From Bacteroides sp. ET71 (GTDB lineage Bacteria > Bacteroidota > Bacteroidia > Bacteroidales > Bacteroidaceae): a stretch of DNA of 64,000 nt. The notes beneath the pieces are model-generated. The model was not told the origin of the DNA and searched no databases. It saw nothing but the letters and a program-made list of their open reading frames with translations. Both the position numbers and the translations under genes were made by a program. This document shows, piece by piece, positions 46,836-62,716 of the stretch. How positions within the stretch are numbered: the stretch's first letter is position 1; every line of letters begins with the position of its first letter. The stretch covers positions 152,732 through 216,731 of the forward strand of contig NZ_JAMBLS010000004.1 of assembly GCF_023336905.1 (NCBI RefSeq). The letters run 5' to 3'.

Positions 46836-47534
46836 ATGGGAAAAGAAACATCTCGGAGGATACAGACCTCTATACTGAATGCAGGTGAAAAGAAACTGTT
46901 AATCTGGCTGGCCCGGCGTCAGCCACGTTGGATGACCTCGGACACACTGACCTATCTGGGCGTGTTCGGTTCGCTGTTGTTCGTCGTGGGAGGCGTCCTG
47001 TCCAACCAATGCGTCGAATGGTTGTGGCTGTCGTCTTTCGGCCTCTTCATCCATTGGTACGGCGACAGCCTGGACGGCACGCTGGCGCGCGTTCGCAACA
47101 CCCAGCGCCCGGTCTACGGTTTTTTCATCGACCACACGCTGGACGCCATCACCACGTTTTTCATCTTTCTGGGCGCCGGCCTTTCGCCAGTGTTGCGCAT
47201 GGACGTGTCGCTGTTGGGACTGGCCGGATACCTGTGCCTGGCCATCTACACCTATGTCTGCACCATCCTGAAAGGTGAGTTCCGGCTGACGTATGCGGCT
47301 TTCGGGCCGACGGAGTTCCGTTTGCTGCTCATCCTCATCAACACGGTCTTCATCTACGCACCGTGGGCCAAGTTGCGTTTCGACGTGGGTGGCGGAATCA
47401 TCTTGGGAACGTTCGACTTCGTCGGTCTGGGTGTGGCCCTCATCTTGTTCCTGATATTCCTGGTACAGTTCCTTCGCGACAAACGCGAACTGGGCACCCA
47501 AGACCCGCTGAAGCCTTTCGACGGCGAAAAGTAA
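46836..47534 (+). CDS. CDP-alcohol phosphatidyltransferase family membrane protein
   Basis: A 232-residue integral membrane enzyme that joins a CDP-linked lipid or alcohol to an acceptor. The signature D-x2-D-G-x2-A-R ... G-x3-D-x3-D is visible as GDSLDGTLAR followed by YGFFIDHTLDA (around residues 77-105), holding the catalytic aspartates and metal site. About six hydrophobic segments surround it. Substrate could be CDP-diacylglycerol with a polar alcohol; family alone does not decide. Followed by GC-rich repeat sequence. Confidence 0.88.
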   Translation: MGKETSRRIQTSILNAGEKKLLIWLARRQPRWMTSDTLTYLGVFGSLLFVVGGVLSNQCVEWLWLSSFGLFIHWYGDSLDGTLARVRNTQRPVYGFFIDHTLDAITTFFIFLGAGLSPVLRMDVSLLGLAGYLCLAIYTYVCTILKGEFRLTYAAFGPTEFRLLLILINTVFIYAPWAKLRFDVGGGIILGTFDFVGLGVALILFLIFLVQFLRDKRELGTQDPLKPFDGEK

Positions 47535-47648: not shown

Positions 47649-50219
47649 TCAGAAAGAAAGCTGCATGGTGGCCCTGACGCCGCGCACCTGAATGTCGGGA
47701 TGATTCCGATAGTTCAGACGCCAGACGTAGTCCAGGCGAAGGAAGTTGAAGATGTTTTCGATGCCTACGCTGGCTTCCATATAAGGCGCCCGCCCCATGC
47801 GTTGGGTGACAGAAGGGAAAGCGTATAGTCCTTCGCCGTTCTGCGCCGGGTCGTTCTTGTCCGTCAGATGCCCCCAAAGGCCGCGGAAGCAGAACACCTC
47901 GCGCCAGCGCAGTTTCTTGATGAGCGGGATGCGGTTCAGCAAGGCGCCGTTCATGTAGTACGTCAAGTCCCACGACAAGTATTCGTCGTTGATGAACTCC
48001 AGCGCGTTCATGTTGGTGTAAGTTTCCGGCTGGATGGTGTAAGTCGTATTGGCGTTGGGCAAAATCAGCAGCGGATAGGGCACGCGCGTCCACACCTTCC
48101 CTCCCTTCAGCAAGGCATCCAGGTAGCCGAAGGCGGAAAACCAGAAGCGCTTCCGCATCCCCACCTCCGTGCGTTGGTAATCGAAAGACGACCCACAGAA
48201 ACCTTTCTTCGCCATCACGTGGCTCAGGTTGAAGATGAGTGCGTCGTAGGTGATGGGGATGCGTTGGGTACGGGTCTGGTAGAACTTCTCCCCGCGCCCG
48301 TAGCGGAAGCGCAATTCCAGCTCTGTCATGTCGTAATGAGCCACCGGAGTCAGCGTCGTGCCGTCCGCGCCGATGCGGTCGAAGCGGGCATAAGGCGTGG
48401 CCTCTTCGCGCAGGTTGCGCACCGTGGCGCCGTACGAGATGCCGTTGTAGTGTTCGCGCGTATAAGTCAGTTCGGCTTTGCGCAGGTAGGTGGCGATGTT
48501 GTCCTTCTTGCGTTTGATGGCCAACATCACGTTGTCCTTGCTCGTGTACATGTAGTTTTGCCCCAGCTTGTTGAGGTCGTACATGTATTCGAACCTGAGC
48601 GAGTGTTGCGGAAACTCCAGCCGGAAATCCTTCCGCGGGGTGAAAGAATACTCCACCAGCCCGTCGTACTTCATCTTCCGGTCTTTCGTGCCATAGGCGG
48701 CATAACCCTCCAGAAACCAGTGGCGGTCGAACTGGGGCGTCGTCCCTCCCCCCAGACGGAAGCGGGCACCCTCGATGGCATTGCCGTTGATGGTACTGTT
48801 CATCGGCCCCAAGTCAAACTTGTTCTTCTCCGGGTTCTTGTTCGTAGGGATATAGCCCGACACGAGGGTGGTCACCACCTTCTCGGCAAAGTAGAAAATG
48901 GGGACAGAGCGCAGCCGCTGCATCAGCTTGTCCACGCCGTTGGGATTCTTCCGGCGTGCCATCTCCGGGCGATTCTCCGTCCAGAACATATCGGAACGCC
49001 GGTAAGCATCTTCCTGCTCCACCACGGGAGCCGGCTGGTCGAAAAGAGCCGCCTCTTCGGCGCCTGGCGGCTCAAAGCTATGCCCCCTGTACACGTTCAA
49101 CCGTTGGGCATACATCCCCTTCGATTTCTCCGTCAGCTTGAAGTTCACACGGATGTCATCCTTCGTGATAAGGCGCGTGCTGTCGGCCGTACGGCGGAAC
49201 TCCTGCTCTATGCTCATGTGCGAGACGAAGTTGAGGTTGATGTCCTTGGCCACATTCAGTACGGCGCGCCTCACAAAGTAAGTCGAGTCGAGCGCCACAT
49301 AAAGATGGCCCGTGAAACCAAACGATTCGGAGTTGAAAGGCACGAAGCCCAAGTCCATGCACGGCTGGCCGGCCACCTGCACCGTGTCCAACAGGTAATA
49401 CTTGTAGAAGGCAGGACCCAACGTAGACAGCGGACTGACGAAACGTTGCAGAAACAAGGGAATGTTGTTCTGAAAGATATCCACCTCGCGGAACGCTTCG
49501 TTCAGGAATTGCTGGATGCCCTCGCGCGAGAACACTTCGTCCACACCTGCCGACTTGCTGCCCAGCAACAAGACTTTCTCACTCTTCGGGTCGCGGCGGT
49601 AAAAGACGCGCTCCAAGCGTTCGCGCTCCGACACTGGCAGAACGGTCGTTCCGGTCTCCAGCGTATCTACGAACTCGTTCACAAAATCGAACTTCCCCGA
49701 CGTTTTCCCCTCTTTCTTGGGCTTTGGGGTATATTCGTTCAGGGCAAAAATCATGCGCTGGTAGCGTTCGTAGCTGAAATAGTCGTGGTCGCGGGGCACA
49801 TGGGCATCGCGGCGGGCAATGACCTTCCGGACAAATTCCACCGCCGGATTCCCCCGCCGCCGGTAACGCTCCCGGCCGGGCTTGATGACCACTTCCTCCA
49901 AAGCGATGCTGCTGGGCGACAAACGGATGTCCAGTCCGCGGGCAGCCTCCTTGCGGACGGGTATCCGCTTCGTGTCATACCCCATGTAGGACACTTCCAG
50001 CACGTGGCTGCCCGCCGCATTTGAAAAGGACAAAGAGAAGCGCCCCGCGTCATCGGTCTGCGCGCCAGTGTACGTGCCCTCCCACACCACTGCGGCGTAA
50101 GGCAAGGGCTCGCCCGTGATGGAGTCTGTCACTGTACCGGTGACAGACAGGCGCTGCGCCAGAAGCCAGGTTGTCCCCCAGTAGAGAAAGAAACATAACA
50201 GTAAGATTTTCTTTGTCAT
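47649..50219 (-). CDS. DUF5686 outer-membrane protein with carboxypeptidase-regulatory domain
   Basis: An 856-residue exported protein (signal KILLLCFFLYWGTTWLLAQ). Residues about 25-105 are a carboxypeptidase-regulatory-like beta-domain (VTGTVTDSITGEPLPYAAVV, LEVSYMGYDTKRIPV). The rest matches DUF5686, a long beta-rich part that looks like an outer-membrane barrel and ends in an aromatic (MQLSF). No catalytic residues are known. It is the last gene of the nine-gene lipid/polyene-like operon, 9 bases after the thioesterase, and may place or export the product at the outer membrane; that is inference. Confidence 0.88.
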   Translation of the reverse strand: MTKKILLLCFFLYWGTTWLLAQRLSVTGTVTDSITGEPLPYAAVVWEGTYTGAQTDDAGRFSLSFSNAAGSHVLEVSYMGYDTKRIPVRKEAARGLDIRLSPSSIALEEVVIKPGRERYRRRGNPAVEFVRKVIARRDAHVPRDHDYFSYERYQRMIFALNEYTPKPKKEGKTSGKFDFVNEFVDTLETGTTVLPVSERERLERVFYRRDPKSEKVLLLGSKSAGVDEVFSREGIQQFLNEAFREVDIFQNNIPLFLQRFVSPLSTLGPAFYKYYLLDTVQVAGQPCMDLGFVPFNSESFGFTGHLYVALDSTYFVRRAVLNVAKDINLNFVSHMSIEQEFRRTADSTRLITKDDIRVNFKLTEKSKGMYAQRLNVYRGHSFEPPGAEEAALFDQPAPVVEQEDAYRRSDMFWTENRPEMARRKNPNGVDKLMQRLRSVPIFYFAEKVVTTLVSGYIPTNKNPEKNKFDLGPMNSTINGNAIEGARFRLGGGTTPQFDRHWFLEGYAAYGTKDRKMKYDGLVEYSFTPRKDFRLEFPQHSLRFEYMYDLNKLGQNYMYTSKDNVMLAIKRKKDNIATYLRKAELTYTREHYNGISYGATVRNLREEATPYARFDRIGADGTTLTPVAHYDMTELELRFRYGRGEKFYQTRTQRIPITYDALIFNLSHVMAKKGFCGSSFDYQRTEVGMRKRFWFSAFGYLDALLKGGKVWTRVPYPLLILPNANTTYTIQPETYTNMNALEFINDEYLSWDLTYYMNGALLNRIPLIKKLRWREVFCFRGLWGHLTDKNDPAQNGEGLYAFPSVTQRMGRAPYMEASVGIENIFNFLRLDYVWRLNYRNHPDIQVRGVRATMQLSF

Positions 50220-50228
50220 AGTTGCAGT

Positions 50229-50651
50229 TTAATCCTTCAAGAAACGCGCTTGCCAGCGGGTGTAATAGTCAGGCTTGTCCGTCAGCAGTTCGCCGTGCGG
50301 GTCGATGAAAAGCTGCGTGGTCTCTGCCGTGCAGCACAACGCCCCGTCGCGTTCCCGGTAAATCTCATAGCTGAAGTCCAAGCGGGCACCGGGTTTGCAG
50401 ACATAACGCGTATGCACCTCTGCCACATCGTCCAGGCCCAACGGGGCCAGGTAGCGCACGTGCAAGTCGTAGACCGGAGCGTAAATGCCCGACCGGCTGA
50501 TGTCGGCATAGCCTATGCCCGGATAACGCCGGCCGAACGACTCGCGCCCGTCTTCCAGGTAGCTGACGTAAGAGCCGTGCCAGACGCACCCCATAGCATC
50601 GGTCTCGCCGAACTTCACGCGGATGCGACAGATGTCTTCCAAGAGTTTCAT
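50229..50651 (-). CDS. 4HBT-type acyl-ACP/acyl-CoA thioesterase
   Basis: A 140-residue hotdog thioesterase. The ATG at 50651 (MKLLEDICRIRVKFGETDAM) lies 7 bases after the fabG stop and gives the usual N-terminus; an upstream ATG at 50678 would overlap fabG. The motif RVKFGETDAMGCVWHGSYVS carries the catalytic aspartate of the family, and YEIYRERDGALCCTAETTQL is the second strand. It probably releases the finished acyl chain from ACP in this operon, similar to ApeK in aryl-polyene clusters. Confidence 0.88.
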   Translation of the reverse strand: MKLLEDICRIRVKFGETDAMGCVWHGSYVSYLEDGRESFGRRYPGIGYADISRSGIYAPVYDLHVRYLAPLGLDDVAEVHTRYVCKPGARLDFSYEIYRERDGALCCTAETTQLFIDPHGELLTDKPDYYTRWQARFLKD

Positions 50652-50658
50652 AGATGGT

Positions 50659-51387
50659 TCAAGTATAAAGTCCGCCATTGATGGATACTACCTCACCCGT
50701 GATGTAAGCCGCAGCAGGCGACACCAGAAAGCCTACCAGCTCGGCCACCTCGTCGGGTGTACCCAGACAGCCCAGGGGGATGGCCTTTTTCAGTTCGGCC
50801 TCGTCCAGCCCCTCCAGCATGTCCGTCTGGATGAAACCGGGTGCCACGGCGTTGACAGTGACGCGTTTGCGGGCAACCTCCAGCGCCAACGACTTGGTGG
50901 CGGCAATCAGTCCGCCCTTGGCAGCGGCGTAGTTGCTCTGTCCCGCCATACCCTTGAGGCCGGTGACACTGGCCACGTTGACGATGCGCCCGTTCTTATG
51001 CAACTGCATGGCCGGCAAAAGGGCCTGCGTCACGTGAAAGAAGCCGTTCAGCGTGATTTCGAGCACCCGGCTCCAGTCTTCTTCGGGCATCAAGGCCATC
51101 ACATGGTCACGACGGATGCCCGCATTGTTCACCAGCACTTCGATGTATTCGTCGGGGTGTTCCGTCTCCCAGGCTTCCAAGGCGCGGCTCACCTGCTGGC
51201 GGTCTGCCACGTCAAACATCAGAATCTCGCCGTCGCCCCCTTCGAGGCGTACCTGGTCGAGCGTATTTTTGGCCTCCGCCGCGTTGTGCACATAGTTAAT
51301 GAGCACCTTATAGCCCATTCGGGACAACTTCAGGCTGACAGCCCGCCCGATGCCGCGGCTTCCTCCTGTAACCAATGCGTACTTCAT
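50659..51387 (-). CDS. FabG-type 3-oxoacyl-ACP reductase
   Basis: A 242-residue short-chain dehydrogenase. Motifs are the cofactor loop YALVTGGSRGIGRAV, LVNNAGIRRD, and the catalytic Ser-Tyr-Lys in ASVTGLKGMAGQSNYAAAKG. The C-terminal PGFIQTDMLEGL and TGEVVSINGGLYT are typical of FabG. In this operon it should reduce the beta-keto group made by the ketosynthase. It is the local copy, not necessarily the housekeeping FabG. It is followed by the thioesterase after 7 bases. Confidence 0.9.
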   Translation of the reverse strand: MKYALVTGGSRGIGRAVSLKLSRMGYKVLINYVHNAAEAKNTLDQVRLEGGDGEILMFDVADRQQVSRALEAWETEHPDEYIEVLVNNAGIRRDHVMALMPEEDWSRVLEITLNGFFHVTQALLPAMQLHKNGRIVNVASVTGLKGMAGQSNYAAAKGGLIAATKSLALEVARKRVTVNAVAPGFIQTDMLEGLDEAELKKAIPLGCLGTPDEVAELVGFLVSPAAAYITGEVVSINGGLYT

Positions 51388-51403
51388 TCTTCTTCCTTAT
51401 TCT

Positions 51404-52882
51404 TTATTTATTTAATACATTGTTCCATATCCATTCTTTCCCCAACAGCTCCGCACACGTCTGCAAGGCCGTCATGGTGACTCCGTGTACTCCGTGCAAC
51501 GCCAGGTTTTGCCCCGTCAGCCAGAGATTGGGCAAAGGGGTGCGGGGCGACAGCAAAGCCATCAGCGGCTGGCGGAAATCTTTCTGCAGCCCGTAGGCCG
51601 AACCTTGAGGGGTGCAGGTGTAATCGCGGAACGTCAGCGGTGTACTGACGTAACACGCTTCCACCAGCGTACTGATGCCCGGAATGACGCGTCCGGCCAA
51701 AGCCAGACATTCGTCGGCCAGGCGACGCTTCAAAGCCAGATAGTCTTCGCCCCGACGGCCCACCGTAGTATCGGCCCAGCGCCGGCAGTGTTCCCACGTC
51801 AGGGGAGTGAGCAAATCCAACTGCCGCGCATAACCGTCGTCCGGCACGGGACTGCTCAGCAAGACGCCTCCCACGGGACCTTCGTCCAGGTAAAATTCCC
51901 ACGCATCGCGCCCCGCATAGACATAATGGTTGCAGTTCCGGTAGGGCAAGGCGCGCGGCTTCAGACGAAGCGACACGGTGCAAAGCCCGAAAGTGTTGTC
52001 TGCTGCCGTCAAGCGATGGCGATAGGATTTGCGCAAGACGCGGCTGTTTTCCAACCACGTGCACGTGACGGCGGGATGGACGTCGCTCAGGAAAGCGTCG
52101 GCCTCGTAGACCTCTCCGTCGGCGCAGCGTGCCGCCACCAGGCGCCCGTCTTTCTCCACCAGTTCCTGCACCTCGGCCCGGCAAAGCACCGTGCCCCCGC
52201 ATTGCCTGATGCCGGACACCAGGCGCCTGACGATTTGCTCGCCACCGCCCCGCAAACGCCAGCTTCCTTCCAAATAGCCCGCCTGGCAATGAGCGAAAGA
52301 GAACAGGGGCAAGGACTGACGGCGCAATTCCATGGTCAATGCGTTGCCGCCCAAGACTTCGCGCAACAGCGGGTCGCGAAAGTGTTCCTGCACATAGTCC
52401 CAGGCACCTGTCTCCAGCAAACGTCCGAAGAAAGCAGCCGACTTGCCGTTGTCCGCCGGGGTCCATTCGTCAAACTGCCGACGCAACACTTCTTGCAACA
52501 GGTCCGCATAACGGCGCAGCGCCTCCCGTTCGGCCGGGAACTCGGCGGTCAAAGCCTCGACAAACGCGTCGAAACCCTGCATGATGGGAAAAGTGCGCCC
52601 GCCAATCATCACCAGGTCAAAAGCCTTGTCCATACGCTGCCAAGGCAGGTCGGCCAGGCCCAGGTAGCAGAAGACGGGGTACAACGATTCGCCCTCGCCC
52701 ACTCCGCCTACGTAGTGAAAACCCGTGTCGAAAGACAAGCCGTCGCGCCGGTAGCTCTGCAAGCAACCGCCCGGCTGGGTGCCGCGTTCCAGCACCAGCA
52801 CGCGGCGTCCTGCCCGCGACAAGAGGTAGCCACACTCCAGACCGCCCAAACCGGCTCCTATGACGATAACATCGTATTTCAT
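51404..52882 (-). CDS. CrtI/phytoene-desaturase-like FAD-dependent oxidoreductase
   Basis: A 492-residue enzyme with an FAD Rossmann motif DVIVIGAGLGGLECGYLLSR at the N-terminus, then VLERGTQPGGCLQSYRRDG and FDTGFHYVGGVG, typical of the CrtI/CrtISO-like superfamily. The C-terminus LWLTGQNLALHGVHGVTMTA is the family FAD-binding end. In a polyene pathway it could introduce or isomerise double bonds, or act on the chain after the dehydratases. Such an enzyme is unusual in a fatty-acid operon. It stands between the FabZ-like dehydratase and fabG. Confidence 0.88.
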   Translation of the reverse strand: MKYDVIVIGAGLGGLECGYLLSRAGRRVLVLERGTQPGGCLQSYRRDGLSFDTGFHYVGGVGEGESLYPVFCYLGLADLPWQRMDKAFDLVMIGGRTFPIMQGFDAFVEALTAEFPAEREALRRYADLLQEVLRRQFDEWTPADNGKSAAFFGRLLETGAWDYVQEHFRDPLLREVLGGNALTMELRRQSLPLFSFAHCQAGYLEGSWRLRGGGEQIVRRLVSGIRQCGGTVLCRAEVQELVEKDGRLVAARCADGEVYEADAFLSDVHPAVTCTWLENSRVLRKSYRHRLTAADNTFGLCTVSLRLKPRALPYRNCNHYVYAGRDAWEFYLDEGPVGGVLLSSPVPDDGYARQLDLLTPLTWEHCRRWADTTVGRRGEDYLALKRRLADECLALAGRVIPGISTLVEACYVSTPLTFRDYTCTPQGSAYGLQKDFRQPLMALLSPRTPLPNLWLTGQNLALHGVHGVTMTALQTCAELLGKEWIWNNVLNK

Positions 52883-52897
52883 CCTTCCGTTCTTTGC

Positions 52898-53275
52898 TCA
52901 ATAGGGCAGCATCTCGCCCTTGTATTCCACGTAGACGCAGCCGCCACTGCTCACACGCGCCACGACCTGCCACTTACCGGAAGCAGGCGTCGCACTCAGG
53001 CTGACATCGACTTCGGGAGAAAGGTCTGGCGAGGCTATTGCCGTGAAGCGGCACTGCGAAATGGTATGAATGTGCAGCCGTTGCCCCACGAAGCGCTCGG
53101 CACACCGACGTATCAGCTCGACGTTGCAGACACCCGGGCACACCGGATGACCGGGAAAGTGTCCGCGATAAACCTCGCAATCGGGCAACAATGCCACGCG
53201 GAACATGGCGCCGCTGTCTGACGGAGTCGTGCCCAACAGGCGGTAATAACTGTTTTCAAAGGATTGTACTGCCAT
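52898..53275 (-). CDS. FabZ-like 3-hydroxyacyl-ACP dehydratase
   Basis: A 125-residue single-hotdog protein. The motif YRGHFPGHPVCPGVCNVELI carries the FabZ His (about 39) and Glu (about 53). The rest is short and beta-rich, ending in VYVEYKGEMLPY. Likely the active dehydratase of the chain-building set, comparable to ApeI. It is 22 bases before the FAD oxidoreductase gene and overlaps none of its neighbours. Confidence 0.88.
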   Translation of the reverse strand: MAVQSFENSYYRLLGTTPSDSGAMFRVALLPDCEVYRGHFPGHPVCPGVCNVELIRRCAERFVGQRLHIHTISQCRFTAIASPDLSPEVDVSLSATPASGKWQVVARVSSGGCVYVEYKGEMLPY

Positions 53276-53281
53276 AAGCTG

Positions 53282-53713
53282 TTATTCGTCAGAACGGATG
53301 GATACTTTCATTTGCGTGTCGGCCACGGGTTGCCCGTCTGCCCGCACTTCGGCGGAGACAACCAGGATGCCTTCGAACTCGGTCTGTATGGTGACCACCG
53401 TGTGCAGCTCGTCGCCCACACGGGGCCGCCGGTGACAGTGAAACTTCTTCACTTCGCCGATGAATCCCAGCGGCGGCCGGGTAGCTCCCGCCTGCACGGC
53501 CCTCCATCCGGCAAAGGCCGATGCCGACTGGGCGATGTGCTCCAGCACACCGGTCTCGGCCAGGCAACCCTCGTCGTCCAGAAAAAAGTTTCCGGAGCAG
53601 ACGGTGAAGCACGCCTCTGCCTCGTCGTCGGTTGCCCGCAACAAACGGTCTACCATGATGATGGGAGTCCGCTGGGGTATAAGTGCCCGGATGTCCGTTT
53701 CCTTGGGTTCCAC
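53282..53713 (-). CDS. ApeP-like hotdog dehydratase
   Basis: A 143-residue hotdog protein from GTG 53713, which lies one base after the ACP stop; longer readings use TTG and overlap the ACP gene by up to 41 bases. Segments LIPQRTPIIMVDRLLRATDD and ETGVLEHIAQSASAFAGW match the ApeP/FabA-type dehydratases, but the GHFPxxP catalytic His loop of FabZ is replaced by SGNFFLDDEG. It may work as the second half of a dehydratase pair with the 52898 gene. Start codon choice is moderately sure. Confidence 0.8.
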   Translation of the reverse strand: MEPKETDIRALIPQRTPIIMVDRLLRATDDEAEACFTVCSGNFFLDDEGCLAETGVLEHIAQSASAFAGWRAVQAGATRPPLGFIGEVKKFHCHRRPRVGDELHTVVTIQTEFEGILVVSAEVRADGQPVADTQMKVSIRSDE

Positions 53714-53714
53714 G

Positions 53715-53957
53715 TCAGGCCAGGTGAGATTCAATGTAATTGTAAAGGTCGGCAAACGTTTTTATTTCGCGCAGTTCTCCGACGGGAATCTTTATCTTGT
53801 ACGTTTGTTGGATGATGGCCACCAGGTCGACCAGGCTCAGGCTGTCCAGTTGGAGCGTCTCCCGCACGTTGGCTTCGGGCGTGAACAAGGCTGCATCTAC
53901 TTCAAATTCATCAGCCAGCAGGCTGTTTACTTTCTCTACTATCTCTTGACGTGTCAT
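53715..53957 (-). CDS. Acyl carrier protein
   Basis: An 80-residue ACP. The phosphopantetheine attachment serine is Ser39 in the motif QLDSLSLVDLVA. It carries the growing chain for the ketosynthase, FabG and dehydratases of this operon. Acidic and helical as expected (for example MTRQEIVEKVNSLLADEFEV). It is separate from the housekeeping ACP. Sited 31 bases after the ketosynthase stop. Confidence 0.93.
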   Translation of the reverse strand: MTRQEIVEKVNSLLADEFEVDAALFTPEANVRETLQLDSLSLVDLVAIIQQTYKIKIPVGELREIKTFADLYNYIESHLA

Positions 53958-53988
53958 AGCAATGGTGTTTTAAAAGTTCTTCTTATGT

Positions 53989-55209
53989 TTACAGATTTCT
54001 TACAATCAGGGTGGAATTGGTCCCTCCAAACCCGAAGGAGTTGGAGAGGAACAGGTCGAAATGCGCCTCGCGCGTCTCGGGCAGCACGTTGATGCAGGCC
54101 GTCTCTTCGTCCGGTTCTTCGAAATTGATGTTTCCCGCAATAAAGCCGGCCTTCATCATGAGGATGGAATAAATCAGCTCGCTTCCGCCCGCCATCCACA
54201 TTTCGTGCCCCGTCTGGCTCTTGGTTGAGGTGACGGGCACCCGGTAGTCGCCGAAAAGGCGTGCGATGGCCTGTGCCTCGCGGCTGTCGCCGATGCGGGT
54301 GGAGGTGGCATGGGCATTGACGTAGCCTATCTGCGCAGGCGTGACGCCGGCGTGTTGCAGGCACAGTTCGAGCGAGCGTGCCGGACCGTCGACATTGGGC
54401 GTAGAGATATGGTCACCGTTTCCGGAGAAACCCCAGCCGACAATTTCAGCCAGGATAGGTGCACCGCGGCGCATGGCGTGTTCGTAACTCTCGACAATCA
54501 GCGTAGCTGCTCCCCCACCCGGCACCAGGCCGTCGCGGCTGCGGTCGAAAGGCCGGCTGGCACGCTCGGGTTCGTCCTCGCGAAGAGAAAAGGATTGTAT
54601 GCCGTCGAAGGCGGCCACGCTGTACATGTTGTTCTCTTGGGCGCCGCCGCAGACGACGCAATCTTGCAAGCCGTCGCGCACCAGCAGGTAGGCCAGTCCC
54701 ACGGAATGGGAGCCCGAGGCGCACGCGGCCGAGGCGGTGAGGTTGATGCCCCGCAAACGGAACAGGCAGGCCAGGTTCATGGTGACGGTGGAGTTCATCG
54801 ACTGGAAGATGCTGCCGCTGCCACACGCAGCGGTGTCGTGGAACTCGCGGAACTTGTCCAGCCCTTGCATAGTGGCCTCGGCCACCGAGTCGTTGCCGTA
54901 GACGATGCCTACCTCGTGGGCGGCGACATAGTCGGGGTCGAGGCGGGCGTGTTGCAGGGCGTCGCGGGTGGCCATGTAGGCATATTGTGCTTCTTCGGGC
55001 ATGAACTGCCTGAGGTTGCGTGAAACATAAGGCTTCAAATCGGGACGGGGCACACGGGTGCACAAAGCCGAACGGAATCCCGCCGCTTTCCGTTCTTCGC
55101 TAAAGACAACGCCGCTGCGCCCTTCATAAAGAGCCTGGCGGACGTCGTCCAACGTCGTACCGAGGCAGGACCAGATGCCCATGCCTGTGATTACTACTCT
55201 TCTTTCCAT
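53989..55209 (-). CDS. Beta-ketoacyl-ACP synthase (FabF/KS-like)
   Basis: A 406-residue condensing enzyme. The catalytic triad is visible: Cys163 in TASAACASGSHSVG, His300 in YVNAHATSTRIGD, and His335 in TSTKSQTGHEMWMAGG (with Lys330). N-terminus VVITGMGIWSCLGTTLDDVR is typical. It elongates the ACP-bound chain by malonyl units. One ketosynthase only is present; aryl-polyene clusters usually have two or three. Its start overlaps the stop of the preceding GNAT-like gene by 16 bases. Confidence 0.93.
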   Translation of the reverse strand: MERRVVITGMGIWSCLGTTLDDVRQALYEGRSGVVFSEERKAAGFRSALCTRVPRPDLKPYVSRNLRQFMPEEAQYAYMATRDALQHARLDPDYVAAHEVGIVYGNDSVAEATMQGLDKFREFHDTAACGSGSIFQSMNSTVTMNLACLFRLRGINLTASAACASGSHSVGLAYLLVRDGLQDCVVCGGAQENNMYSVAAFDGIQSFSLREDEPERASRPFDRSRDGLVPGGGAATLIVESYEHAMRRGAPILAEIVGWGFSGNGDHISTPNVDGPARSLELCLQHAGVTPAQIGYVNAHATSTRIGDSREAQAIARLFGDYRVPVTSTKSQTGHEMWMAGGSELIYSILMMKAGFIAGNINFEEPDEETACINVLPETREAHFDLFLSNSFGFGGTNSTLIVRNL

Positions 55210-56345
55210 GTCAGTATTTTCTTATAGCACCGCCGCCGTTTGCCCACAGTCGGGTGGAGGGGCTTCCATTGCGACAGTTCTTTCAAGTTAGTTTCCAGTT
55301 GCGGCCCGGTTTCAGCCTGTTTGAAACCAAGCTTATTATATATAGGAAGCAAGTCGGCGAAGAACAGGGCGTTCACGCCCAAGCCCTGGTAGTCCGGGCG
55401 AACGGCCACGAGGTAAAGGTCAGCCTTGTCTTCTCGCTTCCACTTCAAGGCACGGAGCAAGTGAAACCAGCCCCAGGGCCACAGGCGTCCGCCGCTGCGC
55501 TGCAAGGCGCGTGTCAGGCTGGGCATCGTGATGGCAACGCCCACCAGCTCGCCTTCGGCATTTTCGACCACCGGCACCATGCGCAGGTCCAGCAGGGGGA
55601 TGTAGCGGGCCAGATACTCGTCTATCTGGCTGTCTTGCAACTCGGTGTATCCGTACAACGGGGCATAGGCCTCATTCAGCAGGCGGAAGACGCGGCGCCC
55701 GATGTCACTCTCGCGCAACTCTTTGTGGGTCAGTTTGCGCACCCGCAGGCCGAACATCTCCTGCGCCAGCGCGGCTGTACGGGCATAGCGCTGGGGCAAC
55801 TGCTTCGGAATCTCGATGTGCGCCTGCACCCAGTCTACTTCTTTCTGGAAGCCCAATGCCTCCAGATGCCGGGGATAGTAGGGCGGGTTGTAGATGGTGA
55901 TAGAAGAACCGGGACGGTCAAAGTCCTCCAGGAGCATCCCTTCTTTGTCGAAATCGAAGATGGCCATCGGACCGACCATCTCCTCCATGCCCTGTCCGCG
56001 CCCCCAATCGGCCACGGCGTCCAGCAGGGCGGCCGAGATGCGGAGGTCGTCTTCAAACTCGATGAAGCCGAAACGCACCTGGCGCGTACCCCACTTCTGG
56101 TTGGCACGACGGTTGATGATACCGGCCACACGGCCCACCGGACGGCCGGAGCCGTCGTAGGCTACAAAGGCACGGATGTCTGAGAACTCCAAAGCAGAGT
56201 TCCGCCGCACGTCGAACGTGTTGCGGACATCACTCTCCAAATCGGGCACGTAACAAGGAAAATCCGCATACAAACGCCTGGGAAGACGGACAAAATCATC
56301 CATCTCACGACGGCTCTGCACCTCTTTTACTATTACTTCTTCCAT
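55194..56345 (-). CDS. GNAT-like acyltransferase, first gene of lipid operon
   Basis: A 383-residue protein. ATG 56345 is fixed by the promoter just upstream, which leaves almost no leader; longer readings begin before transcription. Segments GRVAGIINRRANQKWGTRQV, AIFDFDKEGMLLEDFD, TIYNPPYYPRHLEALGFQKE and, in the acyl-CoA-binding end, LYLVAVRPDYQGLGVNALFF mark a GNAT-like domain. A paralogue is encoded at 62717. Its role may be to transfer an acyl group to an amine or other acceptor. The paralogue's existence outside the operon shows the family has wider use. Confidence 0.82.
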   Translation of the reverse strand: MEEVIVKEVQSRREMDDFVRLPRRLYADFPCYVPDLESDVRNTFDVRRNSALEFSDIRAFVAYDGSGRPVGRVAGIINRRANQKWGTRQVRFGFIEFEDDLRISAALLDAVADWGRGQGMEEMVGPMAIFDFDKEGMLLEDFDRPGSSITIYNPPYYPRHLEALGFQKEVDWVQAHIEIPKQLPQRYARTAALAQEMFGLRVRKLTHKELRESDIGRRVFRLLNEAYAPLYGYTELQDSQIDEYLARYIPLLDLRMVPVVENAEGELVGVAITMPSLTRALQRSGGRLWPWGWFHLLRALKWKREDKADLYLVAVRPDYQGLGVNALFFADLLPIYNKLGFKQAETGPQLETNLKELSQWKPLHPTVGKRRRCYKKILTWKEE

Positions 56346-56354
56346 AACAAAACG

Positions 56355-56385
56355 CGAAAGTATAGAAAAGTTTTCTCCATGCAAA
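56355..56385 (-). promoter_or_regulatory. Promoter of the nine-gene lipid/polyene-like operon
   Basis: On the minus strand TTTG (56382-56385), 19 bases, then TACTTTCG (56355-56362), one mismatch from consensus. The predicted transcript start is only a few bases before the ATG at 56345, so the mRNA may be almost leaderless. Confidence 0.65.
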
Positions 56386-56742
56386 AACATCATAACTGTC
56401 AGAGCATTTTTAAAGAATTAGAGACCAATACCTGCACGCCCGCCCAATGAAAGAAACGGACATCTGGCCACGGCGGCCGTCCGCCACGCCTGCGGCGCAC
56501 ACGGGGCACGGCCGTCACGAACACGGGCCGCGCCTCGTGTCCGCAAGAGGCACGCCCCTCGCAAAGCAAGCCCAGTCTTCATACATATGACAACCCGCCA
56601 GGAACTAAACACTCGTTACATTTCCGATGAAGGGGAAACAGGTTTGTAACAAGTCTGTCACTTTCTCTTCAAGATTCCGTAAGGAACCTGTAACACGCAC
56701 CACGTACTTTTGCAGCAAAATCAAAAAAGAACTTTAAACAAT
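56386..56742. other. Spacer between lipid operon and TonB receptor
   Basis: Holds a GC-rich copy of the dispersed repeat (56499-56539, opening ACACGGGGCACGGCCGTCAC), then the Pho-box-like array and promoter described separately. No gene seen in the spacer. Confidence 0.6.
56645..56712 (+). promoter_or_regulatory. Pho-box-like repeat array with -7 box before TonB receptor
   Basis: TGTAACA-type units recur in an 11-bp register: TGTAACA at 56645-56651, CTGTCAC at 56655-56661, a degenerate CCGTAAG at 56677-56683 and CTGTAACA from 56688. They end 10 bases before TACTTTTG (56705-56712). No -33 TTTG is present, which suits an activator-dependent promoter. The register and motif resemble PhoB-bound boxes. 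Confidence 0.6.
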
Positions 56743-59550
56743 ATGAAACAAATCAAACGAGTATTTCTATCACTACTAATTCTCTTGATGGCCGGACTAC
56801 CGCTGCTGGCCGATGAGAACGTGAACGAAACCAAACAAGGTGCCATCCGCGGACGCATCGTCGACAACACGCAGCAAACCCTTCCGGGCGCCACCGTCTA
56901 CATCGAATCCCTCCACACAGGCGCCATCAGCGACGTGAACGGCTTCTACACCCTGGCCAACCTCGCAGCCGGCACCTACCGGGTGAAAGTCTCCTACGTA
57001 GGCTACTCGCCCGCCGAATTTACCATTACCGTCCCCGAAGGGAAAACCGTCGAACGCGACGTCACCCTGAACGAAGGCATCGAACTGCAAGAAGTCGTCG
57101 TGGGCGGCGCCTTCACCGGACAACGACGCGCCCTCAGCTCGCAGAAAAACGCCATGGGCATCAGCAACGTCGTCTCGGCCGACCAAGTGGGCAAGTTCCC
57201 GGACTCCAACATCGGCGACGCCCTGAAGCGCATCTCGGGCATCAACGTACAGTACGACCAGGGCGAGGCACGCTTCGGACAGGTGCGAGGCACCAGCGCC
57301 GACCTCAGCTCCGTCACCATCAACGGCAACCGCATACCTTCCGCCGAAGGTGACACGCGCAACGTGCAGCTCGACCTCATCCCCGCCGACATGGTGCAGA
57401 CCATCGAAGTCAGCAAGGTAGTGACCGCCGACATGGACGGCGACGCCATAGGCGGCTCCATCAACCTCATCACCAAGAACACGCCTTACCGCCGCATCTT
57501 CAACGCCACGGCCGGAAGCGGCTACAACGCCGTCAGCAAGAAGGCGCAAGTGAACCTCGGGCTGACCTACGGAGACCGCTTCCTGAACGACAAACTGGGA
57601 CTGATGATTTCCGGCTCTTACCAATACGCACCCGGCGGCTCGGACAACGCCGAGTTTGAATACGACGTCGACGACGACCAAGTCGTACTGAAAGAAGCAC
57701 AAGTGCGGCAATACTACGTCACCCGCGAGCGCCAAAGCTACTCGCTGGCCCTGGACTACGAATTTAACGCAGACCACAAAATCTCCTTCAAAGGCATGTA
57801 CAACCGCCGCAACGACTGGGAAAACCGCTACCGTGCCGTCTACAAAGACCTGGACGAAAGCGACCCCGCCGAACAGTCCATCGAACTCCAGACCAAAGGC
57901 GGAGCCAACGACACGAAAAACGCACGCCTGGAACGCCAACAGACCATGGACTTCACCCTGGACGGCGAACACAACCTGGGCGGACGTGTACTGATGGACT
58001 GGGCTGCCTCCTACTCACGCGCCAGCGAAGACCGACCCAACGAACGATACTTCGGACTGAAGATGGACAACAACACGGGCAGCAACCTGCTCAGCACCTT
58101 CCACGGCGTAGGCGGACGCACCCCCTACTCCACCCTGGCCATCCCCGCCCTGAGCGACGAAGCCTGGGAGCTGGACGAACTGACCAACAGCGACCAGAGC
58201 ATCTACGAAAACGAATGGAAATTCCGCCTCAACTTCGAACTGCCCCTGGCCAAAGGCCTCTTCGGCAATACCCTGCGCTTCGGCGGGAAATACACCAACA
58301 AGACCAAGGACCGCGAGACAGAGTGGTACAAGTACGACGAGGCCTTCGACGACAACGACGCCTGGCGCAACAACGGCGCGGCACAAATACGCAGCGGCTT
58401 CATGGTGGGCGACTTCTATCCCGAAGGCACACAATTCGTCAGCAAGGAATACCTGGGCGGCATCAACTTCGGCTCCATGGAAGGAGAACCCGACAACGAG
58501 GAGATGTCCGGCAACTACCACGCCAACGAGCAAATCACCAGTGCCTACCTGCGCTTCGACCAGAAACTGGGCCGCAAACTCAACCTCATGCTCGGGCTCC
58601 GCATGGAACACACTGCACTGGACTACCGCGGCCTGAACTGGGTGGTAGACGAAGAAGAGGAGGAAAGCCTGGCCCCCACCGGCAACCGCAAGAACAACTA
58701 CACCAACTGGCTGCCCAGCGTACTGCTGAAGTACGACGTCAACGACGACTTCAAGCTCCGCGCCTCGTTTACAGAAACGCTCTCACGCCCCAAATACGCG
58801 GCCCTCATTCCCAGCGTCAACTACAACAGTGCCGACGAAGAGGCCACCATCGGCAACCCGGACCTGAAGCCGACTACCTCGTACAACTTCGACCTCAGCG
58901 CCGAATACTACTTCAAGTCCATCGGCCTGGTCAGCCTGGGATTCTTCTACAAGAGCGTCAACGACGTCATCGTGGACGAAGCCTGGCAAGGCATGGCTCC
59001 CGAGATACCCATCAGCGGCACCTACGAGTATGACATCACCAAGCCCATCAACGCCTACGACGCCAACCTCTATGGCATAGAGGCAGCCTACCAACGCGAC
59101 TTCAGCTTCATTGCCCCCGCCCTGAAATGCCTCGGCTTCTACGGGAACTATACCTACACGGCCAACAAGACCAAGAACCACCACTTCGAACACCGCGTGC
59201 TGGAAGAGGGAGAAGAAATCGACATGATAGGCTCGCCCGAACACACGGCCAACGCCTCGCTCTTCTTTGAGAAATGGGGCTTCAACCTCCGCCTCTCCTA
59301 CAACTTCGCGTCGGCCTTCGTGGACGAAATGGGCGAAGTGGCCCAGCTGGACCGCTACTACGACAAGGTGAACTACCTGGACCTGAACGCCACCTACACC
59401 TTCGGCAAGCGTTTCAAGACGACCATCTACGCCGACGTGACCAACCTGCTCAACCAGCCCCTGCGCTATTACCAAGGCACCAAGGACCGCACCATGCAGG
59501 TGGAATACTACGGCGCACGCTTCAACGCAGGCATCAAAGTCAGCTTCTGA
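56743..59550 (+). CDS. TonB-dependent outer-membrane receptor, likely phosphate-ester-related
   Basis: A 935-residue receptor. Signal LSLLILLMAGLPLLA; carboxypeptidase-regulatory-like domain (IRGRIVDNTQQTLPGATVYI, VSYVGYSPAEF); plug domain (NVVSADQVGKFPDSNIGDAL, RISGINVQYDQGEARFGQVR, DMDGDAIGGSINLIT); and a beta-barrel ending ARFNAGIKVSF. ATG 56743 is chosen for the signal peptide and promoter. It belongs to the non-SusC TonB receptors, without a SusD partner. It lies in one transcript direction with a phosphatase, behind a Pho-box-like array, so an organophosphate or phosphate-bound substrate is inferred. Confidence 0.9.
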   Translation: MKQIKRVFLSLLILLMAGLPLLADENVNETKQGAIRGRIVDNTQQTLPGATVYIESLHTGAISDVNGFYTLANLAAGTYRVKVSYVGYSPAEFTITVPEGKTVERDVTLNEGIELQEVVVGGAFTGQRRALSSQKNAMGISNVVSADQVGKFPDSNIGDALKRISGINVQYDQGEARFGQVRGTSADLSSVTINGNRIPSAEGDTRNVQLDLIPADMVQTIEVSKVVTADMDGDAIGGSINLITKNTPYRRIFNATAGSGYNAVSKKAQVNLGLTYGDRFLNDKLGLMISGSYQYAPGGSDNAEFEYDVDDDQVVLKEAQVRQYYVTRERQSYSLALDYEFNADHKISFKGMYNRRNDWENRYRAVYKDLDESDPAEQSIELQTKGGANDTKNARLERQQTMDFTLDGEHNLGGRVLMDWAASYSRASEDRPNERYFGLKMDNNTGSNLLSTFHGVGGRTPYSTLAIPALSDEAWELDELTNSDQSIYENEWKFRLNFELPLAKGLFGNTLRFGGKYTNKTKDRETEWYKYDEAFDDNDAWRNNGAAQIRSGFMVGDFYPEGTQFVSKEYLGGINFGSMEGEPDNEEMSGNYHANEQITSAYLRFDQKLGRKLNLMLGLRMEHTALDYRGLNWVVDEEEEESLAPTGNRKNNYTNWLPSVLLKYDVNDDFKLRASFTETLSRPKYAALIPSVNYNSADEEATIGNPDLKPTTSYNFDLSAEYYFKSIGLVSLGFFYKSVNDVIVDEAWQGMAPEIPISGTYEYDITKPINAYDANLYGIEAAYQRDFSFIAPALKCLGFYGNYTYTANKTKNHHFEHRVLEEGEEIDMIGSPEHTANASLFFEKWGFNLRLSYNFASAFVDEMGEVAQLDRYYDKVNYLDLNATYTFGKRFKTTIYADVTNLLNQPLRYYQGTKDRTMQVEYYGARFNAGIKVSF

Positions 59551-59563
59551 CCACGCGAAGACT

Positions 59564-59678
59564 CATCGCAGCCCTGTACGAAAAGCCATCATAGCCTCGA
59601 ACGAAAGTGTCTCACTGCCTCGTACGAAAGTCTTTCGCAGCCCTATACGATGAGCCTTCGCAACACCATACAATAGTT
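59564..59678 (+). repeat. Five imperfect 23-bp tandem repeats
   Basis: Units start at 59564, 59587, 59610, 59633 and 59656. Each contains a GCC-rich left part and a TACGAAA-like right part; the first four are the most alike. They lie between the receptor and the phosphatase gene. Confidence 0.8.
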
Positions 59679-59736
59679 CTTCCGGGAACAGACACTGCCT
59701 TTTCCCGGAAGATTCCAGATTCGCGCCCCATCTTTG
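59679..59736 (+). promoter_or_regulatory. Hairpin and weak -7 box before phosphatase gene
   Basis: A perfect 10-bp stem (59679-59688 with 59702-59711, 13-base loop) without T-run is followed by CATCTTTG (59729-59736), one mismatch from a -7 box. The phosphatase may have its own start or be reached by read-through. Confidence 0.45.
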
Positions 59737-59788
59737 CAGGCCGAAAACAAAAAAAACAGAAGATATCAACACTAAAAACAGAAAGGAA

Positions 59789-60727
59789 ATGAAAATGAAG
59801 AAAACACTCCTCCTGCTGCTCCTGACCCTCTGCGGCACATGGGCAGTGGCACAAGAGAAAATCGATTACAGCGTCTACGACGACAAATGCAACTTCTACA
59901 TCGCCAACGACCTGGGCCGCAACGGCTACTACGACCAGAAGCCCATCGCCGAACTGATGGGCACAATGGCCGAGGAAGTAGGCCCCGAATGTGTCATCGC
60001 TGCCGGCGACATCCACCACTTCGACGGAGTCGCCTCGGTAAACGACCCCTTGTGGATGACCAACTACGAGCAAATCTACTCGCACCCCGAACTGATGATT
60101 GCCTGGCATCCCATCTGCGGCAACCACGAATACCGGGGCAACACGCAGGCCGTCATTGATTACAGCCGCGTCAGCCGCCGCTGGGAAATGCCCGCCCGCT
60201 ACTACACCAAGACTTTCAACGAAGAGGGAACCACCATACGCATCGTATGGATTGACACGACCCCGCTCATCGACAAATACCGTCAGGAATACGACAAGTA
60301 TCCCGACGCCTGCCAGCAAGACATCAACACGCAACTGGAATGGCTGGAAGCTACCTTGGCAGCAGCCAAAGAAGATTGGGTAGTAGTGGTAGGCCACCAC
60401 CCCATTTATGCCGAGACATCAAAAGACGACGTAGAACGCCAAGACATGCAGAAACGGGTAGACACCATCCTGCGCCGTCACCGCGTGGACATGTACATCA
60501 ACGGACACATCCACAACTTCCAGCACATACGCGTGAAGGGCAGCACCATCGACTACATCACCAACTCAGCCGGCTCGCTCAGCCGCAAGGTGAAGCCCAT
60601 TGAAGGAACGGTATTCTGCAGCAGCGAACCGGGCTTCTCCATCCTGTCCGCCACACCCAAAACATTGGAGCTGCGCATGTTGGACAAGCACGGAAAAGTA
60701 TTGCATACCGTCACACGAACTAAATAA
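59789..60727 (+). CDS. Purple-acid-phosphatase-like metallophosphoesterase, secreted
   Basis: A 312-residue enzyme with signal MKKTLLLLLLTLCGTWAVAQ. Metallophosphoesterase motifs: VIAAGDIHHFDGV, the GNHEYRG block, VVVVGHHPIYAETS and the INGHIHNFQHI block supply the metal ligands. The layout resembles tartrate-resistant (type 5) acid phosphatases. It should free phosphate from organic esters in the periplasm or outside. It follows the TonB receptor in the same direction and ends before a terminator. Confidence 0.9.
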   Translation: MKMKKTLLLLLLTLCGTWAVAQEKIDYSVYDDKCNFYIANDLGRNGYYDQKPIAELMGTMAEEVGPECVIAAGDIHHFDGVASVNDPLWMTNYEQIYSHPELMIAWHPICGNHEYRGNTQAVIDYSRVSRRWEMPARYYTKTFNEEGTTIRIVWIDTTPLIDKYRQEYDKYPDACQQDINTQLEWLEATLAAAKEDWVVVVGHHPIYAETSKDDVERQDMQKRVDTILRRHRVDMYINGHIHNFQHIRVKGSTIDYITNSAGSLSRKVKPIEGTVFCSSEPGFSILSATPKTLELRMLDKHGKVLHTVTRTK

Positions 60728-60764
60728 TACTTGAAAAAACGACTGATTATTGCTTCTTTTTCTG

Positions 60765-60805
60765 TCCCCCGCCTACGGCTTGGTGCCGCGCAGCGGGGGA
60801 TTTTT
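60765..60805 (+). terminator. Intrinsic terminator after phosphatase gene
   Basis: An 8-bp stem (60765-60772 with 60793-60800) with inner partial pairing, followed by T5. It ends the receptor-phosphatase unit just before the converging M64 gene. Confidence 0.85.
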
Positions 60806-60807
60806 CT

Positions 60808-62472: not shown

Positions 62473-62692
62473 AAACTCTTCAATTGAACAAGAAATAAAA
62501 TAAGTCATCACTCACCCGCCCACCCCTTCCGGCATGAGCACGGCCTCAAAAGTAGGCAACCGGACTGAAATATAAAAGGAAAACGCCGGGGAAATGGCTT
62601 CGCGACGGCAAAAACCCGGAAAAGACAAGCGCCGAAGCAAAAAAACGACCCGCCAAATCTTCCTTTTCCTCCCGAATTAGCGTATCTTTGCC

Positions 62693-62700
62693 GCCAAATA
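62693..62700 (+). promoter_or_regulatory. -7 box for second GNAT-like gene
   Basis: TATCTTTG, an exact TAnnTTTG match, 16 bases before the ATG at 62717. No strong -33. Confidence 0.5.
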
Positions 62701-62716
62701 GACACAATAGAACATC

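What the first reader, a model, noticed from the sequence alone, without database searches (positions are those of the whole stretch)
47649..56345. Nine-gene AT-less fatty-acid/polyene-like operon with a CrtI-type enzyme and DUF5686 protein
All genes run on the minus strand with small gaps or overlaps behind one promoter (56355-56385). The set is GNAT-like acyltransferase, KS (Cys163, His300, His335), ACP (Ser39), ApeP-like dehydratase, FabZ-like dehydratase, CrtI-like FAD enzyme, FabG, thioesterase and DUF5686. Known aryl-polyene clusters have ApeP/ApeI, ApeO, ApeQ and ApeK homologues but also ammonia lyase, acyl ligase and extra KS genes, which are missing here. The FAD desaturase-like gene and the acyltransferase are unusual. 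The product may be a polyene, acyl-amine or modified lipid. This is the strongest candidate for an undescribed system.
Basis: partly seen in the sequence, partly recalled or inferred. Interest (0 to 1): 0.8.

Follow-up and report, generated by a model that had tools for sequence, protein, structure and literature searches.

The report
Ceramide-synthase paralog in polyene-type operon
A gut Bacteroides carries an operon resembling the machinery for aryl-polyene pigments, but its first gene is a duplicate of the cell's probable ceramide synthase, which suggests it builds a special acyl chain and attaches it to a sphingolipid-like amine; the product has not been seen.

Summary
The nine-gene minus-strand operon is real (gaps -20 to +31 bp; catalytic residues as reported). 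KS, KR, both dehydratases, ACP and thioesterase each have a counterpart in the E. coli aryl-polyene (APE) cluster, and the KR passes NCBI's FlxB (flexirubin) model. The dehydratases look like an ApeI:ApeP-type heterodimer with a split active site. The operon has no KS-CLF pair, aryl ligase or tyrosine lyase; the genome's only aromatic lyase found is HutH. Relatives' MMPL exporter and LolA found no match in the genome.

New result: the 'GNAT-like acyltransferase' belongs to the YghO/bCerS (bacterial ceramide synthase) family. Its closest paralogs are Bacteroidales copies that, in at least 28 of 131 SPT-bearing genomes, lie within 2.5 kb of serine palmitoyltransferase. The 12 cluster copies treed form one clade nested among them. 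In sampled Bacteroidaceae 32 of 43 FAD-gene hits have this gene just upstream; in eight clusters a PlsC-like acyltransferase takes its place. Ten relatives add a CDP-alcohol phosphotransferase and/or HpnL-like flippase.

Best reading: a dedicated type II fatty-acid/polyene pathway feeding N-acylation of a sphingoid or other amine, giving an envelope lipid. Five relatives keep only GNAT-KS-(ACP)-FAD-DUF5686, which weakens the polyene step. The product is untested.

The parts
56355..56385 (-). probable promoter: TTTG (56385-56382), 19-nt spacer, TACTTTCG (56362-56355)
   Evidence: read; similar element at the same place in L004, L006 and L007; Bacteroides consensus recalled; not tested experimentally
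55194..56345 (-). YghO/bCerS-family N-acyltransferase (GNAT), 383 aa
   Evidence: 25% identity over 384 aligned columns to E. coli YghO, E 8e-31; tree; weak PF00583
53989..55209 (-). beta-ketoacyl-ACP synthase, ApeR/FabB-like, 406 aa; C163, H300, H335
   Evidence: best E. coli APE hit ApeR 36% over 414 aligned columns, E 2e-69
53715..53957 (-). acyl carrier protein, 80 aa; Ser39
   Evidence: PF00550; ApeF 34%
53282..53713 (-). ApeP-like dehydratase subunit (DHP); GTG start assumed; conserved Glu58, no GHFP His
52898..53275 (-). ApeI-like dehydratase subunit (DHZ); conserved His39
51404..52882 (-). CrtI/CrtISO-like FAD enzyme, 492 aa
   Evidence: homologs at E<=1e-60 in 115 of 393 genomes of the order
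50659..51387 (-). 3-ketoacyl-ACP reductase, FlxB/ApeQ-like, 242 aa
   Evidence: NF053542 FlxB 378.7 bits, cut-off 340; ApeQ 42%
50229..50678 (-). 4HBT thioesterase, ApeK-like
   Evidence: PF13279; ApeK 30%
47649..50219 (-). DUF5686 protein with N-terminal CarbopepD_reg_2 domain; probably an outer-membrane beta-barrel (inferred)
   Evidence: PF18939 126.6 bits, PF13715
46836..47534 (+). CDP-alcohol phosphotransferase with a D-x2-DG-x2-AR...D-x3-D type motif; convergent neighbour, possible head-group enzyme
   Evidence: motif; PIP-synthase models far below cut-off; 60-63% homologs beside DUF5686 in L167, L169, L170, 96% in L004
62717..63853 (+). second YghO-family copy (GNAT2), probable ceramide synthase; not part of the operon
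   Evidence: 49% to the cluster GNAT; 26% to YghO, E 5e-37; tree

Best explanation
The operon is a reduced aryl-polyene-type fatty-acid factory coupled to a ceramide-synthase paralog. KS, KR and a DHP:DHZ heterodimer extend a chain on the dedicated ACP with malonyl-ACP supplied by the housekeeping FabD. No enoyl reductase is encoded in the operon, so the chain would stay (poly)unsaturated. The CrtI/CrtISO-like FAD enzyme desaturates or isomerises it. The thioesterase edits or releases. The YghO/bCerS-like GNAT then moves the acyl chain onto the amine of a sphingoid base made by the genome's serine palmitoyltransferase (or onto a similar amino-lipid). DUF5686, and in relatives a CDP-alcohol transferase, HpnL-like flippase or MMPL/LolA pair, finish and place the lipid in the envelope. 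Shown here: gene content, family membership, split dehydratase residues, placement of the GNAT among Bacteroidales YghO-like paralogs, linkage. Inferred: every chemical step, chain unsaturation, the amine acceptor, membrane location, and that GNAT2 is the ceramide synthase.
For: APE counterparts for six genes; FlxB model met. DHP has E58 in 29 of 29 rows and HFP in none; DHZ has H39 in 22 of 22, matching the published single-active-site ApeI/ApeP heterodimer (PMC8041823, passage). GNAT is homologous to YghO, which PMC9386255 lists as homolog of C. crescentus CC_1154, needed for dihydroceramide (passages). Loci: SPT beside GNAT in L137, L139, L140, L142; GNAT plus epimerase-like ORF in L137, L139, L140, L153 (epimerase named by eye). 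126 of 131 SPT-positive genomes have a GNAT match, against 150 of 262 SPT-negative. Cluster GNATs are one clade (100/100) inside a clade (99/98) with six GNAT2-type proteins. GNAT directly upstream of 32 of 43 FAD hits. SPT present in the same genome, 687 bits over a 640 cut-off. CDP-alcohol transferase and/or HpnL-like flippase in 10 of 29 distinct GNAT-bearing loci, MMPL in 9 others, none with both.
Against: Five relatives (L156-L160) keep only GNAT-KS-ACP-FAD-DUF5686 (ACP detected in four of the five), with no room for dehydratases between GNAT and FAD (1535-1767 bp). DHZ, KR or TE also go undetected in other loci. So the dedicated polyene chemistry is not always kept. SPT is on another contig (C17). 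150 of 262 SPT-negative genomes also have a YghO-like GNAT, so the family is not tied only to sphingolipids, or SPT was missed. B. thetaiotaomicron's 3-ketosphinganine reductase is an SDR, BT_0972 (PMC9278070, passages), not the CerR-type epimerase, so the pathway differs within the order. 11 of 43 FAD hits have no GNAT upstream. No structure prediction, no lipid data.
Confidence: 0.45

Rival explanations
1. An APE/flexirubin-type pigment pathway: an aromatic starter from elsewhere is extended to an aryl polyene, and the GNAT only replaces the PlsC-like acyltransferase that fixes it to an ordinary lipid anchor.
For: Six APE counterparts; KR = FlxB model; PlsC-like gene in the same slot in 8 clusters, L101, L102, L104, L105, L106, L110, L111 (clustered; PF01553 tested on L111's alone) and L175 (BLAST); larger APE-like clusters share the FAD gene.
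Against: No aryl ligase or CLF in the operon; the only aromatic lyase found passes HutH (579 bits, cut-off 539) and fails FlxA TAL (321, cut-off 700). HutH as BLAST query gave no hit in 52 related loci at 1e-4. A YghO/bCerS-type enzyme suggests an amine, not a glycerol hydroxyl.
Confidence: 0.2
2. A special, non-polyene acyl chain (for example hydroxy, branched or mono-unsaturated) for an N-acylated lipid. KS plus dedicated ACP extend it, KR/DH are optional or shared with primary fatty-acid synthesis, and the FAD enzyme saturates or modifies it.
For: The set kept in L156-L160 is GNAT-KS-(ACP)-FAD-DUF5686; KS is nearest FabB-like and ApeR-like enzymes and no CLF is present.
Against: Many clusters keep an ApeI/ApeP-type pair and an ApeQ/FlxB-type KR, a combination known from polyene pathways.
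Confidence: 0.25
3. The GNAT acts on a different amine (amino acid, ethanolamine, glucosamine), giving an N-acyl amine signal or lipid unrelated to sphingolipids.
For: The cluster GNAT clade has a long stem branch (0.57) and may have changed substrate; distant loci pair a YghO-like GNAT with an AMP-ligase-like gene and a CrtI-like FAD gene, no sphingolipid gene being noticed by eye in their ORF lists (L021, L024, L027, L037).
Against: Closest paralogs belong to the family linked to SPT elsewhere in the order; head-group-type genes in ten relatives.
Confidence: 0.2
4. A decayed APE cluster with little function, having lost MMPL, LolA, CLF and ligase.
For: Neither an MMPL nor a LolA homolog of the relatives was found in the genome.
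Against: All nine frames are intact, spacing is tight, L004 keeps 87-98% identity; the short form is common (GNAT-FAD spacing of 2.28-2.67 kb, too short for an MMPL gene, in 15 of the 32 linked hits).
Confidence: 0.07

Closest known systems
Aryl polyene (APE) cluster of E. coli CFT073 (apeA-R)
   Same: KS~ApeR 36%, KR~ApeQ 42%, DHP~ApeP 29%, DHZ~ApeI 27.5%, ACP~ApeF 34%, TE~ApeK 30% (ape letters assigned by me from order and function)
   Different: no counterpart of the ApeO/ApeC KS-CLF pair, ApeH ligase, ApeD, ApeJ, ApeB, ApeL/M in the operon; adds FAD enzyme, YghO-like GNAT, DUF5686
Flexirubin cluster (flx/dar) of Chitinophaga pinensis
   Same: KR passes the NCBIfam FlxB model; type II fatty-acid-like polyene logic (PMC3992019, part 1 of 5 read)
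   Different: no FlxA TAL found; only one KS; DarA/DarB not looked for
Bacterial ceramide synthase bCerS (C. crescentus CC_1154) / YghO
   Same: near full-length homology of GNAT and GNAT2 to YghO
   Different: the cluster GNAT is a separate paralog placed in a fatty-acid/polyene operon instead of near SPT; not compared with CC_1154 itself
SgaAB polyketide-derived sphingolipids of Pseudomonas fluorescens MYb115
   Same: a polyketide-type synthase supplying a sphingolipid (PMC12134224, passages)
   Different: there a type I PKS feeds the long-chain base through an alpha-oxoamine synthase; here a type II set would feed the N-acyl chain
Inositol phosphoceramide locus BT_1522-1526
   Same: a CDP-alcohol-type enzyme (BT_1523) serving inositol lipids including inositol phosphoceramide (PMC9246714, PMC8791184, passages)
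   Different: the cluster's CDP-alcohol genes are only remotely similar (BT1523 model 22.8 bits against a 350 cut-off for the L007 gene; no hit for the window's)

Membership tests
Aryl polyene BGC | ApeR-like KS, ApeQ-like KR | tested here: met
Aryl polyene BGC | ApeI:ApeP dehydratase heterodimer with one active site | tested here: met
   sequence level only: split His/Glu pattern, 6qsr chains among the hits; PF22818 ApeI matched by 19 of 22 DHZ but PF22817 ApeP by only 2 of 29 DHP at E 0.01; the complex itself is not shown
Aryl polyene BGC | ApeO-ApeC KS-CLF pair | tested here: not met
   one KS in the operon
Aryl polyene BGC | ApeH aryl ligase, ApeD/ApeJ transferases in the cluster | tested here: not met
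   no hit among the window proteins compared at E 0.1
Aryl polyene BGC | MMPL exporter and LolA | tested here: not met
   not in the operon; no match in own genome to relatives' proteins (the tool warns that an empty answer needs a positive control). Present in many relatives
Aryl polyene BGC | aryl polyene product | not testable with these tools
   needs chemistry
Flexirubin BGC | FlxB reductase | tested here: met
   378.7 bits, cut-off 340; it also passes general FabG models (for example 283.1, cut-off 273)
Flexirubin BGC | FlxA tyrosine ammonia-lyase | tested here: not met
   the one PF00221 protein in the genome is HutH
Flexirubin BGC | DarA/DarB | not tested
Bacterial ceramide synthase (bCerS/YghO) | near full-length homology | tested here: met
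   to YghO
Bacterial ceramide synthase (bCerS/YghO) | genetic link to SPT/CerR | tested here: inconclusive
   seen for other members of the family in the order, not for the cluster copy itself; SPT is on C17
Bacterial ceramide synthase (bCerS/YghO) | N-acylates a long-chain base | not testable with these tools
   needs enzyme assay
DUF5686 | PF18939 above gathering score | tested here: met
   126.6 bits, cut-off 39.2

The most novel reading that the evidence does not exclude
Gut Bacteroidaceae make an undescribed class of membrane lipid: a ceramide-like molecule whose N-acyl chain is a conjugated polyene built by a dedicated APE-type synthase and attached by a duplicated ceramide synthase, so pigment-type chemistry and sphingolipid chemistry are fused in one operon.
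Probability: 0.25. Interest if true: 0.82.

Novelty: new variant of a known kind. Interest (0 to 1): 0.6.

Why it matters
Bacteroides sphingolipids act on host immunity and metabolism (stated in PMC9278070 and PMC11087976, passages). A dedicated acyl-chain synthase with its own ceramide-synthase paralog would predict a new, testable sphingolipid or N-acyl lipid, possibly redox-protective like APEs, in a family where 42 of 349 sampled genomes carry the marker FAD gene at E<=1e-120, 32 of them with the GNAT upstream. It would also give a function to a DUF5686 protein and to a CrtI-like enzyme outside carotenoid synthesis.

Tried and rejected
Rejected: (a) a complete APE or flexirubin cluster (membership rows). 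(b) A carotenoid pathway: the FAD protein is below the cut-off of each of the 25 NCBIfam models shown (44 matched) and its neighbours are fatty-acid genes. (c) Tyrosine-derived starter: only HutH. (d) A known structured RNA: no Rfam hit at 43000-64000. (e) Foreign composition: GC 0.58-0.61 in the 2-kb steps from 46 to 56 kb lies in the upper part of the window's range (0.45-0.61), not a clear island. (f) The sigma-70 scan did not pick up the Bacteroides-type promoter, as expected from its different consensus.

The ten paper searches were made; in their listings and in the passages I read, I saw no description of an operon joining APE-type genes with a ceramide-synthase-like gene. That covers only this open-access library. 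The paper that PMC9278070 cites for ceramide synthase (its ref. 21) is not held, so whether it already names a Bacteroides gene, and whether GNAT2 is it, is unchecked.

Weak points of my counts: gene absence in relatives rests on BLAST at 1e-4 and simple ORF calls, so a missing ACP, DHZ, DHP or KR in single loci (for example L164, L166, L169, L170) may be a miss. The 20 GNAT2-type loci were picked by hand, partly for tandem or long-frame copies, so they are not a random sample. L102's DHZ (opposite strand; it has AHFP) was left out of A2; L015 was left out of A3. The GNATs of L092 and L010 are N-terminally short. 20 of the 52 GNAT matches listed have no listed FAD hit beside them and are not counted as cluster members.


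Full report
What is there. The window is part of a Bacteroides-like genome (G000:C4:152732-216731), with Candidatus Bacteroides merdipullorum (L004) the nearest named relative found (genus inferred from it). Nine intact ORFs run on the minus strand from 56345 to 47649 with gaps of -20 to +31 bp. A Bacteroides-type promoter sequence ends about 10 nt before the first ATG, with a similar element in L004, L006 and L007 (consensus recalled). All nine genes recur in the same order in L004 at 87-98% identity.

Enzymes. Against the E. coli APE cluster the best partners are KS-ApeR 36%, KR-ApeQ 42%, ACP-ApeF 34%, DHP-ApeP 29%, DHZ-ApeI 27.5% and TE-ApeK 30% (I assigned the ape letters from gene order and function, the record has none). 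KR passes the NCBIfam FlxB model (378.7 bits, cut-off 340), and also general FabG models. KS stays below the cut-off of all 21 NCBIfam models it matches. The dehydratases look like a split heterodimer. In 29 of 29 DHP rows the Glu (E58) is invariant and HFP occurs in none. In 22 of 22 DHZ rows the GHFP His (H39) is invariant, while the FabZ Glu position is E in 12, Q in 8, G in 1 and L in 1. Chain A of 6qsr is the best PDB hit of the DHZ profile (5.5e-8), and chain B is fourth among the DHP hits (1.2e-7); that 6qsr is the Xenorhabdus ApeI:ApeP complex is recalled. Against this, the Pfam ApeP model matches only 2 of 29 DHP rows at E 0.01, while ApeI matches 19 of 22 DHZ rows. PMC8041823 describes ApeI/ApeP as a heterodimer with a single active site (passage).

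What is missing. The operon has no CLF, aryl ligase, enoyl reductase, MMPL exporter or LolA. MMPL and LolA of relatives found no match in the whole genome (99.58% complete, 189 contigs); the tool notes that an empty answer without a positive control proves little. The one PF00221 lyase is HutH by profile, in what looks like a hut operon (operon judged by eye).

The acyltransferase. GNAT and the second window copy GNAT2 (62717-63853) are 49% identical and both match E. coli YghO along most of its length (E 8e-31 and 5e-37). PMC9386255 lists yghO as the homolog of C. crescentus CC_1154, one of the genes needed for dihydroceramide (passages); PMC11087976 describes bCerS as a cytoplasmic enzyme adding the second acyl chain (passages). 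Over 393 genomes of the order, 276 have a YghO-like match and 131 an SPT match. 126 of the 131 have both, against 150 of 262 without SPT (not corrected for kinship). From the listed places, at least 28 of the 131 have the GNAT within 2.5 kb of SPT, 27 on the same strand and 22 within 150 bp on the same strand. Of 20 GNAT2-type loci fetched, hand-picked, L137, L139, L140 and L142 have SPT beside the GNAT; in L139 and L140 an epimerase-like ORF lies between two GNATs, L137's 706-aa GNAT protein has an extra part that I take for an epimerase, and L153 has GNAT followed by an epimerase-like ORF (epimerase recognised by eye). In the other 15, window genus included, I saw neither. In a tree of 42 proteins the 12 cluster copies form one clade (100/100) inside an 18-member clade (99/98) with six GNAT2-type proteins, five of them of the window's family and L147 of another (inner forks 90/80 and 95/78). 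So the cluster gene most likely arose once, by duplication of, or from a close relative of, the probable ceramide synthase. PMC9278070 says a ceramide synthase is known and cites a paper I could not open.

Neighbourhood survey. The FAD gene marks related clusters: 115 of 393 genomes of the order at E<=1e-60. From these I fetched 40 regions and pooled them with 12 of the 80 loci (52 in all). Two sorts appear. Window-like clusters have KS-ACP-DHP-(TE)-(DHZ)-(MMPL)-FAD-(KR)-(LolA); larger ones have GT2, a CLF-like KS, ligase, deacetylase and one or two FAD genes. A few loci are fragments or odd (L097-L100, L109). HutH as query found no lyase in the 52 loci. The gene just upstream of KS is the GNAT in Bacteroides/Prevotella-type loci and a PlsC-like protein in eight others (L101, L102, L104, L105, L106, L110, L111 and L175). 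No locus showed both. In some (for example L095, L096) neither was seen. In 349 genomes of the family, 42 have the FAD gene at E<=1e-120, with 43 hits; 32 of the 43 have the GNAT upstream on the same strand within 5 kb, 11 do not.

Downstream parts. Twenty further family loci plus the earlier ones give 29 distinct GNAT-bearing loci, the window included. MMPL is present in 9; an HpnL-like flippase and/or CDP-alcohol transferase near the cluster in 10 others; neither in 10 (window and L004 have a convergent CDP-alcohol gene); none has both (hypergeometric 0.009 if independent, which they are not). The window's convergent gene 46836-47534 has a CDP-alcohol transferase motif and 60-63% homologs beside DUF5686 in L167, L169 and L170. 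In Bacteroides a CDP-alcohol-type enzyme, BT_1523, serves inositol lipids including inositol phosphoceramide (PMC9246714, PMC8791184, passages).

Result against the polyene part. L156-L160 have GNAT-KS-(ACP)-FAD-DUF5686 only. The 1535-1767 bp between GNAT and FAD leave room for KS and ACP but no dehydratase pair, and FAD is followed directly by DUF5686. If these clusters work, KR and DH must come from elsewhere or the chain is not a dedicated polyene. I could not search those genomes further (cap reached).

Judgement. Structure of the locus, APE kinship and the kinship of the GNAT to the ceramide-synthase family are well supported. That the product is an N-acylated lipid is likely (about 0.6, my estimate). 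That the acceptor is a sphingoid base and the chain a polyene are each open; both together I put at about 0.25. APE-like clusters in Bacteroides are known in print (PMC12940132, passages), so the kind is known; the pairing with a ceramide-synthase paralog is the new variant.

Noticed in passing
L021, L024, L027, L037 (about 7-11.5 kb in each): Distant Bacteroidota carry a three-gene set: ~590-aa AMP-ligase-like protein (by eye), YghO-like GNAT, CrtI-like FAD enzyme (21-24% to the window's in A3). A second pairing of the same two odd enzymes, with a ligase in place of the fatty-acid genes.
   Followed up: partly
L156, L157, L158, L159, L160: Minimal clusters GNAT-KS-(ACP)-FAD-DUF5686 without detected KR, dehydratases or thioesterase.
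   Followed up: partly
G341, G185, G274, G286, G101: CrtI-like FAD matches in open frames of about 1000 aa, in four of the five genomes with two matches listed side by side; many other large clusters have two FAD genes in tandem.
   Followed up: no
L137:3209-5329: GNAT fused to a further ~330-aa part that looks like a CerR-type epimerase (by eye), directly beside SPT.
   Followed up: partly
L097, L098: Only KR, FAD and a LolA-like gene stand together, with no KS or ACP detected nearby.
   Followed up: no
window 56710-63853: GNAT2 lies 6.4 kb from the cluster GNAT; TonB receptor, metallophosphoesterase and an M64-like gene (by eye) lie between. In G165 (L146) homologs of the receptor and phosphoesterase also lie near GNAT2, with no cluster gene detected there.
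   Followed up: partly
window 56345-56385: The promoter sits so close to the GNAT start that the transcript would be nearly leaderless.
   Followed up: no
L010:7239-9796 and L172: DUF5686 reads as two overlapping ORFs in Bacteroides sp. An322.
   Followed up: no
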